Assembly: GCF_013911755.1 (NCBI RefSeq)
Contig: NZ_JACESP010000001.1
Location: forward strand, 248,001-312,000
Length of the DNA stretch: 64,000 nucleotides
Reading direction: 5' to 3'
Source of the DNA: Sphingosinicella sp.
GTDB taxonomy: Bacteria > Pseudomonadota > Alphaproteobacteria > Sphingomonadales > Sphingomonadaceae
The position numbers and the translations under genes were made by a program. Position 1 is the first letter of the stretch; every line of letters begins with the position of its first letter. Below, in pieces: positions 11,433-15,319 of the stretch. Below the pieces are notes generated by a model that was not told the origin of the DNA, searched no databases, and was given only the letters and a program-made list of their open reading frames with translations.

Positions 11433-11564
11433 TTAATTGGCCGTGTCTTCGACCGCTTCGCCGGCCGACTGGACGTCCTTGCCGACACCTTCGACCGTGT
11501 TGCAGGCCGCAGCGGCCAGCAGCGCAATGATAACAGCGAACTTTGCACCCATTTTATTGCGCAT
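11433..11564 (-). CDS. Entericidin A/B family lipoprotein
   Basis: A 43-residue product that is too short for most gene finders. It has a lipoprotein signal peptide (KFAVIIALLAAAA) followed by the lipobox Cys and the entericidin core CNTVEGVGKDVQSAGEAVED. Entericidins are small membrane lipoproteins that are often stress induced in alphaproteobacteria. I chose the ATG at 11564 because GGGAGA sits 6 bases upstream of it; the ATG at 11570 would touch the ribosome site. An EcfG-type promoter candidate lies 28 bases upstream of the start, which fits its position at the edge of the stress locus. Confidence 0.88.
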   Translation of the reverse strand: MRNKMGAKFAVIIALLAAAACNTVEGVGKDVQSAGEAVEDTAN

Positions 11565-11591: not shown

Positions 11592-11618
11592 AAAACGGTT
11601 GTCGCCTCAATAGGTTTC
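11592..11618 (-). promoter_or_regulatory. Candidate EcfG-type promoter of the entericidin gene
   Basis: On the minus strand GAAAC (11618-11614) is separated by 16 bases from CGTTTT (11597-11592). The sigma-EcfG consensus is GGAAC, 16-17 bases, CGTT, so there is one mismatch in the -35 element and none in the -10 element. The element lies about 28 bases upstream of the entericidin start. This is a motif match only. Confidence 0.5.
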
Positions 11619-11642
11619 ATCGGACCGTTCCGGCGGCAGCAC

Positions 11643-11691
11643 AAAAAGAAAAGAGCCCGATGCCGGCGGGGGGAGCAGGCAACCGGGCTCT
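11643..11691 (-). terminator. Intrinsic terminator of the PhyP-like gene
   Basis: AGAGCCCG (11652-11659) pairs with CGGGCTCT (11684-11691), with an inner TGCC/GGCA pairing inside the loop. Read on the minus strand, the stem is followed by TTTCTTTTT, the reverse complement of 11643-11651. It lies 89 bases downstream of the leftward kinase-like gene and would isolate it from the entericidin gene. Confidence 0.6.
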
Positions 11692-11780
11692 GGTGGGACA
11701 GCGAGAGCGGGGGGCAAAGTTCGCTGTCCGTGCGGCATCAACGGCGAATCACCGGCATGGTTCCCTCGCGGGCGATAATT

Positions 11781-13415
11781 TTATTCCGCCATTTTCAGGG
11801 GGAATTCGACAATGTAGCAGGGCACGCCGGCGTCGAAGGTCAGGCGACCGCGAAGCTGGCGAACCATGCCGCTGACGATGCGTGCCGCAGCGCGGGTTTC
11901 CGTGGGTGCCAGCGGATCATCCTCCCCAAACGCATCAGAACAAATGGTCAATTTCCCGCCGCCTTCGGTGCGGCGGACATGGATATCGATCACCAGCTTG
12001 GCCCGCCCTTCCGCTGCCGCGAGGCGCGCCGCGAAAGCAATGACCTCGGTGATCAGGAAGGCGAGCGGCACGGCTGAGTCCTGGCTGATGTGCAGGCGCT
12101 CCAGATGCGTATTGATGCGGGGCTCGACAAGTTTCGCCGTGGGAATGATCTGCTGAAGGCTGGCGCAGAGATCGTGGGTGAGCGCCGTGAAGTCCACGCC
12201 TTGCGTGTCGCTTTCCTCATACAGCCAGCGGTGAACGATAGACAGAGCGCCGACACGCATCTGGATGCTCGCGTATGCGCGCCCCACGGAGCCGCCCTCG
12301 GCTTCGCGGGCCTGGATGCTGATAAGACTGGCAATGATCTGCAGATTGTTCTTCACGCGGTGGTGGACCTCGCGCGTCAGGCGGCGCTGTTCGGTGAGTG
12401 CGGCATCCACCTCGTGCCGCGCCTCCGCCATGTTCCTCGCCATCGCATCGAACGTCTCGGCGAATGCCTGCATCTCATCGGTCCGCCCGGCGCGCCCGGA
12501 CAGGCGCACCCGGTCGTCGCCAGCGCCATAGGCGCGAACGCCTGTCGCCATGTTCTGCAGCGGGCGCACGACAAAGCGCCGCACGACCATCCAGCCGATG
12601 AGCAGCGCTGCGATCCACATCAGCGCCGGGGCAGCGATCGCAAGCACTTCGGATGTGGCAAGGCGCTCTGCGGGCACAACGGTGGTGAGTGCGAACGGCG
12701 CAATCGAGAGCGGGCCTGCCGCAACCACCTGATCGCGTCCGCCTGCTTCCGTGATACGGCGCACCGTCAGCAGGCCGCCTGGGGCCTTAATATCGGGCGG
12801 GGGAACACCGACGATCGGCCTTTCTCCCAGCCAGACCATCACGGCACCCTCCATCGCTGCGACCTCGCGCAGCCGGGTCTTCAGGCGGGAAACAGATGCC
12901 GTCGCGACAATGAGACCGGGTCCTTCCGCATCCGACGTCTCGCGAACCGCGAAAAATACGTGGTCTCCGCCCGGCCAGATCAGGTTTTCACGCTCTCCTT
13001 CTGCCGCAAGGCGCGTAAGCTCCGCAGCCGACGGCTTCGTTCCGCCGCGGCTTTGGCAGATCGGGCGGCCGAGCTTGTCCGTCCAGATGATGGCGTCAAA
13101 TGTTTCCGCGTCGTCGAGCGCGTTTGCGGCTCCCGTGTTGCATGTCTGGCCGTCGTGGAGGCCGCTTCCGTTACGAAGTAGGGCGCGTAGAACCAGAAAA
13201 TCGACGTTCAGCAGGTCGTCGACGATACGTGCGGTCGCGCGGAACTGGTTCTCGGCACGGATCAGCTCGGCTTCGCGCGTGCCGCGGATTCCATCCGCAG
13301 CAAGCACCGCGGCGAGAATACCGATCGGCAGCAATGCCAGCGTGAGCGCGACGGCAAGCTGGAAAGACAGCGAACGTCTTGGCCCCGAACCCTTGGTTTC
13401 TGTCTTTTCCGGCAT
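11781..13415 (-). CDS. PhyP-like sensor protein: HisKA_2 histidine kinase fold with degenerate ATP site
   Basis: The 544-residue protein has a membrane helix near 20-45, a large extracytoplasmic domain, a second helix near 260-285 (ALMWIAALLIGWMVV), a HAMP-like segment, a HisKA_2 helix with the phospho-acceptor REVHHRVKNNLQIIASLI (His 351-352), and a C-terminal ATPase-like domain. In that domain the N box reads ITEVIAFAAR without the essential Asn, and the expected DxGxG reads SDAFGEDDP, so ATP binding and autophosphorylation are doubtful. It is divergent from phyR. In sphingomonads a HisKA_2 protein in this place, PhyP, dampens PhyR; I infer the same phosphatase-type role. Started at the ATG giving MPEKTETKG; an upstream extension is not supported. 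Confidence 0.8.
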   Translation of the reverse strand: MPEKTETKGSGPRRSLSFQLAVALTLALLPIGILAAVLAADGIRGTREAELIRAENQFRATARIVDDLLNVDFLVLRALLRNGSGLHDGQTCNTGAANALDDAETFDAIIWTDKLGRPICQSRGGTKPSAAELTRLAAEGERENLIWPGGDHVFFAVRETSDAEGPGLIVATASVSRLKTRLREVAAMEGAVMVWLGERPIVGVPPPDIKAPGGLLTVRRITEAGGRDQVVAAGPLSIAPFALTTVVPAERLATSEVLAIAAPALMWIAALLIGWMVVRRFVVRPLQNMATGVRAYGAGDDRVRLSGRAGRTDEMQAFAETFDAMARNMAEARHEVDAALTEQRRLTREVHHRVKNNLQIIASLISIQAREAEGGSVGRAYASIQMRVGALSIVHRWLYEESDTQGVDFTALTHDLCASLQQIIPTAKLVEPRINTHLERLHISQDSAVPLAFLITEVIAFAARLAAAEGRAKLVIDIHVRRTEGGGKLTICSDAFGEDDPLAPTETRAAARIVSGMVRQLRGRLTFDAGVPCYIVEFPLKMAE

Positions 13416-13443
13416 CTTCCCAAACGAACTTAAGTATGGGGCG

Positions 13444-13469
13444 AAACAAAAGAAAGCCTCGACCGTTCC
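13444..13469 (-). promoter_or_regulatory. Candidate EcfG-type promoter of the PhyP-like gene
   Basis: On the minus strand GGAAC (13469-13465) is followed after 16 bases by TGTTTC (13448-13443). This matches the sigma-EcfG consensus (GGAAC, 16-17 bases, CGTT) except for the first base of the -10 element. The site lies about 28 bases upstream of the kinase-like gene's start, in the divergent region shared with phyR, and would give feedback control of PhyR by its own regulon. Confidence 0.55.
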
Positions 13470-13545: not shown

Positions 13546-14340
13546 ATGACATTGGCTGCGAAACTCGCGCCGCATCTCCCGCTGCTCCGTCGCTATGCGC
13601 GGGCGCTCACGGGAACGCAGCGGGACGGGGACACGTATGTACGTGCGGCGCTGGAGGCGATCGTCAGCGCGCCGCAGGATTTTCCGCGCGATGTGGATGA
13701 GCGACTGGCGCTCTACCGCACGTTCCACGTCATCTGGTCGTCGTCGAACATCGATGTCGATTCCGACGAGCCGGCAGCATCCGATTTCGAGCGTGCCGCC
13801 CACCAGCGTCTCGCCGCGATCACGCCGCTGTCGCGCCAGGCGCTGTTGCTCACCGCGATGGAGGGTTTTTCGCACGAGGATGTCGGCTACCTCATCGATC
13901 TTGATCCGGACAGCGTCTCGGGCCTCGTGAAGGAGGCCATGGATGAAATCAGCCGGCAAACGCGTACGCGCGTGCTCATCATCGAAGATGAACCGATTAT
14001 CGGCATGGACCTCGACAGCATCGTCCGCGACCTAGGCCACGACGTGACCGGCATCGCGGTCACCCGTGACGAAGCCGTGGCACTGGCGATCGAAACCGAA
14101 CCCGGGCTCGTGCTTGCGGATATCCAGCTGGCCGACGACAGCTCCGGGATCGACGCGGTGAAGGACATTCTCGGGCGATTCTCGGTCCCGGTTATATTCA
14201 TCACGGCCTTTCCCGAGCGTCTGCTCACCGGGGAGCGCCCGGAGCCGACGTTTCTCATCACCAAACCGTTCCAGCGCTCGACCGTTTCGGCGGCGATTGC
14301 CCAGGCGCTTTTCTTCAACAGCACGGCGGCGATGCGATGA
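13546..14340 (+). CDS. phyR: General stress response anti-anti-sigma regulator PhyR
   Basis: The 264-residue protein has the PhyR architecture: an N-terminal sigma-factor-like domain (about 1-135, with LAPHLPLLRRYARALTGTQRDGD and LLTAMEGFSHEDVGYLID) joined to a C-terminal receiver domain (about 140-260). The receiver shows the acidic pair in RVLIIEDEPIIGMDLDS, the phospho-acceptor Asp in VLADIQLADD, the Thr in VIFITAFPE and the Lys in FLITKPFQ. Phosphorylated PhyR binds NepR and frees EcfG. The start ATG has an AAGGAGG ribosome site about 10 bases upstream. It is divergent from the PhyP-like gene. Confidence 0.95.
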   Translation: MTLAAKLAPHLPLLRRYARALTGTQRDGDTYVRAALEAIVSAPQDFPRDVDERLALYRTFHVIWSSSNIDVDSDEPAASDFERAAHQRLAAITPLSRQALLLTAMEGFSHEDVGYLIDLDPDSVSGLVKEAMDEISRQTRTRVLIIEDEPIIGMDLDSIVRDLGHDVTGIAVTRDEAVALAIETEPGLVLADIQLADDSSGIDAVKDILGRFSVPVIFITAFPERLLTGERPEPTFLITKPFQRSTVSAAIAQALFFNSTAAMR

Positions 14341-14403: not shown

Positions 14404-14550
14404 ATGGCCATGGAACAGGACCACGAAACGGTGAGGACGAACGAGGCGAGGGCGGGAGAAACGCCGCATATCACTCGGTATATCCTTATGTTCTCGGTTG
14501 TGCTGGTGGTCGCGATCTTCGCGGCGATGCTGTTCTTCTGGTCACGCTGA
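14404..14550 (+). CDS. Unknown 48-residue single-pass membrane protein in the stress locus
   Basis: A small open frame with a good ribosome site (CAGGAGCC just before the ATG), an acidic/polar N-terminus of about 25 residues (MAMEQDHETVRTNEARAG) and one strong C-terminal membrane helix (ITRYILMFSVVLVVAIFAAM), ending FFWSR. I do not recognise the family. It fits neatly between phyR and the nepR-ecfG fusion gene (22 bases to the next ATG), so it is probably co-transcribed with the sigma factor. It is not NepR: it has none of the NepR helix pattern. Confidence 0.65.
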   Translation: MAMEQDHETVRTNEARAGETPHITRYILMFSVVLVVAIFAAMLFFWSR

Positions 14551-14572: not shown

Positions 14573-15319
14573 ATGATCGAACAGACGACCGCGCAGCGCG
14601 CCGGTGCCAGCCCGTTGGGCGCAGACGAGATCGGCGGGTTCCTGCGCTCTGCCTATGCGGAGGCGGCGACGCAGCCGCTCCCGCAGGTGTTCCTCGACCT
14701 GTTGGCGCGGCTGGAGACGAGCCCCGACGACACGAAGCAGGGGCAGCTTTCCGACAAGGCGTTCAAGGACGAGCTTTCGGCCGTGATCCCGCAGCTCCGT
14801 GCCTTCGGACGATCGCTTTCGGGCAATCGCGACATGGCGGACGATCTCGTGCAGGAAACGCTGCTGAAGGCGTGGGCGGCGCGGGATCGCTTCCAGGCCG
14901 GGACGAACATCCGTGCTTGGACCTTCATCATCCTCCGGAACCTGTTCCTCAGCCAGATGCGCCGGTCGCGCTTCAAGGGCGAGTGGGACGAGCTTGTCGC
15001 CGACCGGCTGCTTTCCGCACCGGCTGGACAGGACAAGCAGATCGAACTCGCCGATCTTCAGCGCGCGCTCCTCGAACTGCCGTCTGCGCAGCGCGAGGCA
15101 CTGATCCTCGTCGGTGCTGGCGGCTTTGCCTATGAAGAGGCGGCGACGATCTGCGATTGCGCGGTCGGTACCATCAAGAGCCGAGTCGCACGTGGCCGCG
15201 CAGCGCTCGAGCTGGTGATCGCCGAGGGCAGGCTCCCGTCGCGGCGGGGTTCGAGCGCATCGGGCACGACGGCGCTTGACGAGATCATGGGACAGGTGGA
15301 TCAGCTGGCGCGCGAATAA
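14573..15319 (+). CDS. ecfG: Fused NepR anti-sigma factor and EcfG general stress sigma factor
   Basis: One uninterrupted 248-residue frame. Residues about 18-50 (ADEIGGFLRSAYAEAATQPL, then PQVFLDLLARLE) carry the NepR signature that normally forms a separate anti-sigma protein of about 60 residues. After a short linker (TSPDDTKQGQL) comes a full ECF15/EcfG sigma factor: region 2 with LRAFGRSLSGNRDMADDLVQ and AWTFIILRNLFLSQM, region 4 with LPSAQREALILVGAGGFAYE and GTIKSRVARGRAAL, and a C-terminal tail. No separate nepR gene is nearby. The sequence shows no stop or obvious frameshift at the junction, but a sequencing indel cannot be ruled out. AGGGG lies 7 bases before the ATG. Confidence 0.85.
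   Translation: MIEQTTAQRAGASPLGADEIGGFLRSAYAEAATQPLPQVFLDLLARLETSPDDTKQGQLSDKAFKDELSAVIPQLRAFGRSLSGNRDMADDLVQETLLKAWAARDRFQAGTNIRAWTFIILRNLFLSQMRRSRFKGEWDELVADRLLSAPAGQDKQIELADLQRALLELPSAQREALILVGAGGFAYEEAATICDCAVGTIKSRVARGRAALELVIAEGRLPSRRGSSASGTTALDEIMGQVDQLARE

What the first reader, a model, noticed from the sequence alone, without database searches (positions are those of the whole stretch)
14573..15319. NepR anti-sigma factor fused in frame to the EcfG sigma factor
In the general stress response, NepR is normally a separate small protein that holds EcfG inactive until PhyR titrates it. Here residues about 18-50 carry the NepR signature (IGGFLRSAYAEAATQPL, FLDLLARLE) and the rest is a complete EcfG. 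No other nepR is nearby, and no stop codon, ribosome site or internal start lies in the linker. If real, inhibition becomes intramolecular and PhyR must open the same molecule, which would change the stoichiometry and switching of the pathway. The alternative is a sequencing or assembly indel that removed a stop.
Basis: partly seen in the sequence, partly recalled or inferred. Interest (0 to 1): 0.85.

Follow-up and report, generated by a model that had tools for sequence, protein, structure and literature searches.

The report
Stress sigma factor carrying its inhibitor
In Sphingosinicella bacteria the master switch protein of the general stress response is made as one chain with its own inhibitor, and no separate copy of the inhibitor was found in the genome, so the on/off control probably happens inside a single molecule.

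Summary
ORF 14573-15319 (+) carries a NepR domain (PF18557, E 6.5e-7, above its cut-off) in frame with a complete EcfG sigma factor. It is no artefact: 4 of 5 other genomes of the genus (Sphingosinicella) have the same fusion at 90-93% identity, and the NepR part is as constrained as the sigma domains (pN/pS 0.067 against 0.060 and 0.074; flanks 0.40, 0.55). Fusion itself is known: Methylobacteriaceae EcfGs have a NepR-like N-terminal extension (PMC4814048), said there to be absent from other Alphaproteobacteria. New here are a second lineage and the loss of free NepR: Pfam's model and a profile from close relatives found only the fused copy in the five genomes with ecfG, one a single contig. 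27 of 29 unfused loci examined keep nepR between kinase gene and phyR; Sphingosinicella does not. In three genera that keep both copies the fused NepR evolves faster (0.22-0.49 against 0.07). Best reading: an intramolecular partner switch, the NepR segment shutting its own sigma until PhyR~P pulls it off.

The parts
14573..15319 (+). NepR-EcfG fusion gene, 248 aa
   Evidence: PF18557 + PF04542 + PF08281 in one frame; full length in 4 further Sphingosinicella genomes
14624..14719 (+). NepR domain (residues 18-49)
   Evidence: PF18557 E 6.5e-7; A3 profile 37.9 bits; pN/pS 0.067 (residues 17-49), 0.071 (18-49)
14720..14746 (+). linker, residues 50-58, variable in 9 of 9 positions, no stop and no ATG/GTG/TTG
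14783..14971 (+). sigma region 2
   Evidence: PF04542 residues 71-133
15053..15208 (+). sigma region 4
   Evidence: PF08281 residues 161-212
13546..14340 (+). phyR, anti-anti-sigma response regulator upstream of the fusion on the same strand
   Evidence: PRK09191 368.9 bits, cut-off 240; sigma-like domain pN/pS 0.070, receiver 0.032
14410..14550 (+). small membrane protein (46 aa) between phyR and the fusion; recurs in the same slot in many relatives; function unknown
11781..13415 (-). membrane HisKA_2 histidine kinase homologue, divergent from phyR (PhyT/PhyP-like by place, an inference); standalone nepR is missing between it and phyR
   Evidence: PF07568 E 7.8e-22; NCBIfam PhyK model only 124 bits against a cut-off of 750; synteny; start position
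13443..13467 (+). putative sigma-EcfG promoter GAAAC-N16-CGTT upstream of phyR, found in 5 of 5 Sphingosinicella loci; one base off the GGAAC consensus

Best explanation
The gene encodes an EcfG general-stress sigma factor whose only NepR anti-sigma is built into its own N-terminus. Without stress, the NepR segment folds back over the sigma2/sigma4 surface of the same molecule and keeps it off RNA polymerase. Under stress, PhyR is phosphorylated and its sigma-like domain binds the NepR segment, opening the molecule; the sigma part, still tethered to PhyR~P, joins RNA polymerase. Inhibitor and sigma are therefore always 1:1, and PhyR competes with a tethered ligand. Shown: the fusion, its conservation, the constraint on the NepR part, the failure to find another NepR, and its place after phyR. 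Inferred: co-transcription, binding in cis, and opening by PhyR~P.
For: The NepR domain passes the Pfam cut-off. Full-length fusion at 90-93% identity in 4 of 5 other genomes of the genus; the fifth, 78% complete, gave no ecfG match. pN/pS of the NepR part equals that of the sigma domains while both flanks drift. In 5 of 5 genomes with ecfG no second match passes the PF18557 cut-off (best other 16.1 bits), and a profile of 17 standalone NepRs of relatives finds nothing else below E 0.03 (150 of 165-263 candidates scored per genome). The fused domain is more constrained in this genus (0.071, 95% CI 0.015-0.152) than in three genera that keep a free NepR (0.254, 0.219, 0.486). PhyR keeps a constrained sigma-like domain. 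In M. extorquens only EcfG1 without its NepR-like extension binds NepR in vitro (PMC4814048 section 21), as expected if the extension occupies that surface.
Against: No structure or binding data for this protein. The linker is only about 10 residues and I could not test whether it spans the NepR site in cis. In other genera the fused domain coexists with a free NepR, so it may do something else there. M. extorquens EcfG1 isoforms with the extension were pulled down with NepR in vivo (PMC4814048 section 17), so an extension need not block NepR fully. The constraint comparison rests on 2-5 genomes a group and a codon bootstrap that ignores relatedness. A pair of MAGs in which no free NepR was found gives 0.19 on seven differences, within the range of the looser genera, and the fused-only G008 has a weak fused domain (17.3 bits with PF18557).
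Confidence: 0.6

Rival explanations
1. Inhibition in trans: the NepR segment of one molecule closes the sigma part of another, giving head-to-tail dimers or oligomers that PhyR~P breaks up.
For: The linker is short (9-10 residues), which can favour domain swapping.
Against: No oligomer evidence. Linker length and sequence differ widely between genera, which suits a flexible tether as well as a swap.
Confidence: 0.15
2. Shield or scaffold: the NepR-like segment has lost anti-sigma activity and instead blocks free NepR, stabilises the sigma factor, or recruits PhyR.
For: Related genera keep a free NepR as well, and in three of them the fused domain is looser. M. extorquens EcfG1 binds NepR in vitro only without its extension.
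Against: In Sphingosinicella no free NepR was found that could be blocked, yet the segment is most constrained there and, of the sphingomonad fusions scanned, the most NepR-like (30.6-33.0 bits with PF18557; the others at most 29.4).
Confidence: 0.15
3. The chain is cut, or a short EcfG is also made from an internal start, so that the pathway works as two separate proteins.
For: M. extorquens EcfG1 has two isoforms from two start codons (PMC4814048). Codon 39 is ATG or GTG in 4 of 5 genes, codon 15 ATG, GTG or TTG in 4 of 5, and CTG 43 is in 5 of 5. The variable linker could be a protease site.
Against: No ATG/GTG/TTG is shared by the five genes in codons 41-80, and none lies in the linker; a start at codon 39 or 43 would cut the NepR domain in two. 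A release mechanism would need a protease that nothing here points to.
Confidence: 0.08
4. Sequencing or assembly error, or a recent stop-codon loss in one strain.
For: None found. In the two genomes of genus g88 that I read, nepR and ecfG are separate but in one frame, divided only by TGA-ATG, which shows how easily a fusion can arise.
Against: The same fusion is in 5 of 5 Sphingosinicella genomes with ecfG, from separate assemblies, and in further genera.
Confidence: 0.01

Closest known systems
NepR-like N-terminal extension of EcfG in Methylobacteriaceae (M. extorquens; PMC4814048, sections 17 and 21 read, other passages seen)
   Same: About 55 extra N-terminal residues resembling NepR in front of an ECF15 sigma factor.
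   Different: There a free NepR exists, ecfG lies away from phyR and there are six ecfG copies. Here the fused copy is the only NepR and the only EcfG found, downstream of phyR on the same strand.
Canonical PhyR-NepR-EcfG partner switch (Sphingomonas melonis Fr1, Caulobacter)
   Same: phyR, a membrane HisKA_2 kinase homologue, EcfG and a NepR domain at one locus, with an EcfG-type promoter motif upstream of phyR.
   Different: NepR is normally a free protein of about 60 residues that can be titrated independently of EcfG (recalled; PMC8103513 passages).
Two-nepR arrangements (Sphingopyxis granuli TFA nepR1/nepR2, PMC7083833 passages; L154 and L155 here)
   Same: One nepR ahead of ecfG and a second one divergent from a phyR.
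   Different: All genes separate; in S. granuli nepR1 lies elsewhere in the genome with a second phyR. The Sphingosinicella state is explained by fusing the first and losing the second.
ECF sigma factors fused to an anti-sigma factor (IutY/ECF243, some ECF36; PMC8999054 passages)
   Same: Sigma and anti-sigma in one chain.
   Different: Those are membrane anti-sigma parts; for IutY, activation by proteolysis has been characterised. NepR is soluble and should be released by partner switching.

Membership tests
NepR anti-sigma factor (PF18557) | NepR core sequence above the curated cut-off | tested here: met
   29.3 bits against 25.7
NepR anti-sigma factor (PF18557) | E or Q at the residue three before the conserved Pro (a feature derived here, not one stated in print that I saw) | tested here: met
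   Q34 here. E in 37 of 37 standalone sphingomonad NepRs; Q 21, E 5 of 26 standalone from Methylobacterium-like and neighbouring genomes. E or Q in 12 of 22 sphingomonad fused and 13 of 29 fused of the Methylobacterium type.
NepR anti-sigma factor (PF18557) | free-standing small protein | tested here: not met
   fused in frame to EcfG
NepR anti-sigma factor (PF18557) | binds EcfG and PhyR | not testable with these tools
   no binding assay; structure prediction unavailable
EcfG (ECF15) sigma factor | sigma2 + sigma4 closest to EcfG | tested here: met
   best solved relative 5UXX_A, deposited with a NepR chain, E 1.8e-43
EcfG (ECF15) sigma factor | locus with phyR | tested here: met
   phyR at 13546-14340
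Methylobacteriaceae-type extended EcfG | about 55-residue NepR-like N-terminal extension | tested here: met
   58 residues before the sigma part
Methylobacteriaceae-type extended EcfG | a separate NepR in the same genome | tested here: not met
   none found
Methylobacteriaceae-type extended EcfG | ecfG away from the phyR locus | tested here: not met
   fusion follows phyR on the same strand with one small ORF between

The most novel reading that the evidence does not exclude
A general stress response that has given up free NepR altogether: inhibitor and sigma factor form one molecule, PhyR~P opens it by competing with a tethered ligand, and, since free NepR promotes PhyR phosphorylation in S. 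melonis in vitro (PMC5898713, passage), PhyR may be phosphorylated on the sigma factor itself, in an obligatory PhyR-NepR-sigma complex.
Probability: 0.45. Interest if true: 0.75.

Novelty: new variant of a known kind. Interest (0 to 1): 0.6.

Why it matters
Partner switching is usually discussed as titration between free proteins whose ratios set the threshold. A genus in which inhibitor and sigma are locked 1:1 removes one variable and makes a standing question testable: does PhyR~P only sequester NepR, or does it act on a NepR-EcfG complex? Sister genera with free NepR only, both, or fused only give a ready natural series. The fused-only state also shows that a NepR-like extension on EcfG can be under as strong a constraint as the sigma factor itself, which bears on the open question in Methylobacterium of what that extension does.

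Tried and rejected
Artefact: rejected, the fusion is in independent assemblies. Free NepR too diverged for Pfam: tested with a profile of 17 standalone NepRs of close relatives, nothing beyond the fused copy in G000-G004 at E below 0.03. In that call only 150 first-look candidates a genome were scored (of 221, 189, 263, 165, 183 in G000-G004); the PF18557 search scored all of its candidates. G005 (78% complete) showed neither ecfG nor a NepR better than 14.9 bits.

Glu-loss idea: in sphingomonads every standalone NepR read (37 of 37) has Glu where the fused ones rarely do (2 of 22), which first suggested that tethered NepR needs weaker binding. Standalone NepRs of Methylobacterium-like and neighbouring genomes mostly have Gln there (21 of 26), the residue that Sphingosinicella has, so I dropped it as an argument for this genus. 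The class 'E or Q' still separates standalone (63 of 63) from fused (25 of 51). For one search I fetched 60 places, my pick from the listed part's matches, leaning to better scores; 93 loci were given to the script, 55 frames were counted, and frames without a readable NepR motif (or, for standalone, under 20 bits) were dropped before the count, among them the Microvirga copy L244. The 22 sphingomonad 'fused' rows are also my choice: L069 was taken in on its alignment alone, without a PF18557 match.

Single origin of the sphingomonad fusion: not settled. The EcfG tree needs 3 changes and the AU test does not reject one clade (p 0.235, with two long rows left out).

A second EcfG in the genome: the only other match at E 1e-8 or better (C8) is a 36%-identity ECF followed by a gene that I read, by eye, as its own anti-sigma factor; its family scan failed and was not repeated. 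A Mesorhizobium plasmid copy (H41, L245) fetched as a possible third lineage showed no NepR motif by eye.

Rfam at gathering scores found nothing in the window. A file of the whole genome was not given.

Full report
WHAT IS THERE. The ORF at 14573-15319 (+) encodes 248 residues. Pfam's NepR model matches residues 18-49 (E 6.5e-7, 29.3 bits, cut-off 25.7), sigma-70 region 2 matches 71-133 and region 4 matches 161-212, all in one frame. The sigma part is closest among solved structures to 5UXX_A (E 1.8e-43), an entry that also holds a NepR chain. The linker SPDDTKQGQ (residues 50-58) has no stop and no ATG, GTG or TTG. In codons 41-80 no ATG, GTG or TTG is shared by the five genes of the genus; CTG 43 is shared, and codon 39, inside the NepR part, is ATG or GTG in 4 of 5.

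WHOSE IT IS. The window lies in a 3.63-Mb, 48-contig genome. A named collection puts the genus as Sphingosinicella: S. soli, S. microcystinivorans and a MAG carry the protein at 92-93% identity. Of the other whole genomes of the genus, G001-G004 have it full length at 90-93%; G005 (78% complete, 680 contigs) gave no ecfG match. Several other records named Sphingosinicella (for example L111, L119) have an unfused ecfG, so the name is not a safe guide.

IS THE NEPR PART REAL AND USED? Between the five Sphingosinicella genes, pN/pS is 0.067 in the NepR part, 0.060 in sigma2 and 0.074 in sigma4, against 0.40 in the N-terminal tail and 0.55 in the linker, where 9 of 9 residues vary. So a NepR-shaped block is held between two drifting stretches as tightly as the sigma factor itself.

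IS THERE ANOTHER NEPR? PF18557 gives one match over the cut-off in the own genome, the fused one; the next are 14.4 bits. Among the 24 genomes, G000-G004 show only the fused copy over the cut-off; their best other match is 16.1 bits. A profile of 17 standalone NepRs of close relatives (A3) finds the fused domain in G000-G004 at 35.2-40.4 bits and nothing else below E 0.03 (150 of 165-263 first-look candidates scored per genome). G002 is one contig and rated 100% complete. One other ECF matched at E 1e-8 or better in the own genome (36% identity); it is followed by a gene that looks, by eye, like its own anti-sigma factor.

SURROUNDINGS. Upstream on the same strand lie phyR (13546-14340) and a 46-residue membrane protein (14410-14550); divergent from phyR is a membrane HisKA_2 kinase homologue (11781-13415); S. 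melonis has its PhyT gene at the phyR locus too (PMC5898713, passage). NCBIfam's PhyK model reaches only 124 bits of its 750 cut-off, so the kinase's name is open. glnE follows the fusion. I scanned 17 chosen loci and 29. Of the 29 of these with an unfused ecfG, 27 have a nepR (45-75 bits) between kinase and phyR; the exceptions are L077 and L247. The small protein was found in 22 of the 29 and glnE in 20. In the four Sphingosinicella loci the slot between kinase and phyR holds no nepR, nor does it in the window. A motif GAAAC-N16-CGTT lies 103 bases before phyR in the window and 100-104 in the other four loci; it departs by one base from GGAAC-N16-CGTT (consensus as in PMC7083833, passage). 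Co-transcription of phyR and the fusion is inferred from the close spacing only.

WHERE THE FUSION COMES FROM. NCBI places Sphingosinicella and Polymorphobacter in Sphingosinicellaceae; the other genera are unnamed. Two genomes of g88 have nepR and ecfG in the same frame, divided only by TGA and ATG. Parvibaculum-like L154 and L155 have two nepR genes, one ahead of ecfG and one beside phyR; Sphingopyxis granuli has a comparable pair (PMC7083833, passages). The simplest history: the nepR ahead of ecfG fused with it, and Sphingosinicella then lost the one beside phyR. The EcfG tree needs 3 changes between fused and unfused; one clade is not rejected (p-AU 0.235).

FUSED ONLY VERSUS BOTH. Of the genomes examined, both a fused and a free NepR were found in g85 5 of 5, g94 2 of 2, g13 1 of 1, g6 4 of 4 (free copy convergent, between ecfG and glnE) and G340 (its free copy 22.1 bits, under the cut-off). 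Fused only: Sphingosinicella 5 of 5 with ecfG, G008, G801 and G802; in G801 and G802 the fused domain itself scores only 16-18 bits, so a diverged free copy could have been missed. G803 has one further weak match (19.2 bits) that I did not follow. The fused NepR part has pN/pS 0.071 (95% CI 0.015-0.152) in Sphingosinicella but 0.254 in g6, 0.219 in g85 and 0.486 in g94 (two genomes), while the sigma part is alike in all four (0.049-0.078). Share of bootstrap draws in which Sphingosinicella is not lower: 0.0055, 0.0265, 0.0005. The free NepR of g85 gives 0.197, like its fused one. Against the pattern: the MAG pair L171/L181, fused only, gives 0.19 from seven differences, and the fused domain of G008 scores only 17.3 bits with PF18557.

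WHAT IS KNOWN. PMC4814048 (sections 17 and 21 read; other passages seen) reports that M. [quoted passage not shown] in vivo both EcfG1 isoforms were pulled down with NepR. I see such copies in Methylorubrum, Methylobacterium and Microvirga plasmid records (three read, L244 by eye only) and many PF18557 matches in an unnamed genus that I take to be Methylobacterium-like (29 fused frames, of which L242 and L243 are from named plasmids). My searches for a fusion or extension of NepR and for Sphingosinicella with NepR showed me no report outside Methylobacteriaceae. That rests on listings plus the papers named here; other listed papers, such as PMC3999984 and PMC11165598, were not opened, and the library lacks most subscription journals.

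MECHANISM. Shown: fusion, conservation, constraint, no second NepR found. Known for the family (recalled, and passages of PMC8103513 and PMC5898713): NepR binds EcfG and keeps it from RNA polymerase; PhyR~P mimics sigma and takes NepR; NepR aids PhyR phosphorylation in vitro. Inferred: here the NepR segment binds its own sigma part and PhyR~P opens the molecule. A trans (dimer) version and a shield role are the main rivals.

VERDICT. Real and conserved; a new variant (sole, fused NepR; second lineage) of a known kind (NepR-like extension on EcfG).

Noticed in passing
window 11643-11731 (-), promoter 11740-11764 (-): Candidate stress small RNA behind the kinase gene: a GGAAC-N16-CGTT motif in 4 of 5 Sphingosinicella loci (one-base departure in S. 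soli), then about 90 conserved bases with a hairpin whose loop holds CCCCCC and a terminator-like hairpin with a T run (fold z-score -5.1 for 11628-11731). Resembles GsrN-type RNAs, often proximal to the GSR locus (PMC5869019 section 14). No Rfam match at gathering scores.
   Followed up: partly
window 11433-11564 (-): Entericidin-like 43-residue lipoprotein (PF08085, 41.1 bits) behind a second EcfG-like motif GAAAC-N16-CGTT at 11594-11618.
   Followed up: partly
window 14410-14550 (+): 46-residue single-helix membrane protein of unknown function, found between phyR and ecfG in 22 of 29 unfused loci and in fused ones.
   Followed up: no
L067 7613-7780, L251 8789-8983, L252 8866-8988, L073 7918-8037: A NepR gene convergent to ecfG, between ecfG and glnE; in genus g6 the only free NepR found, elsewhere a second one.
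   Followed up: partly
L069 8868-9506 (-): G017 has a second EcfG-like gene on another contig whose N-terminus aligns with the fused NepR part, without a PF18557 match there.
   Followed up: no
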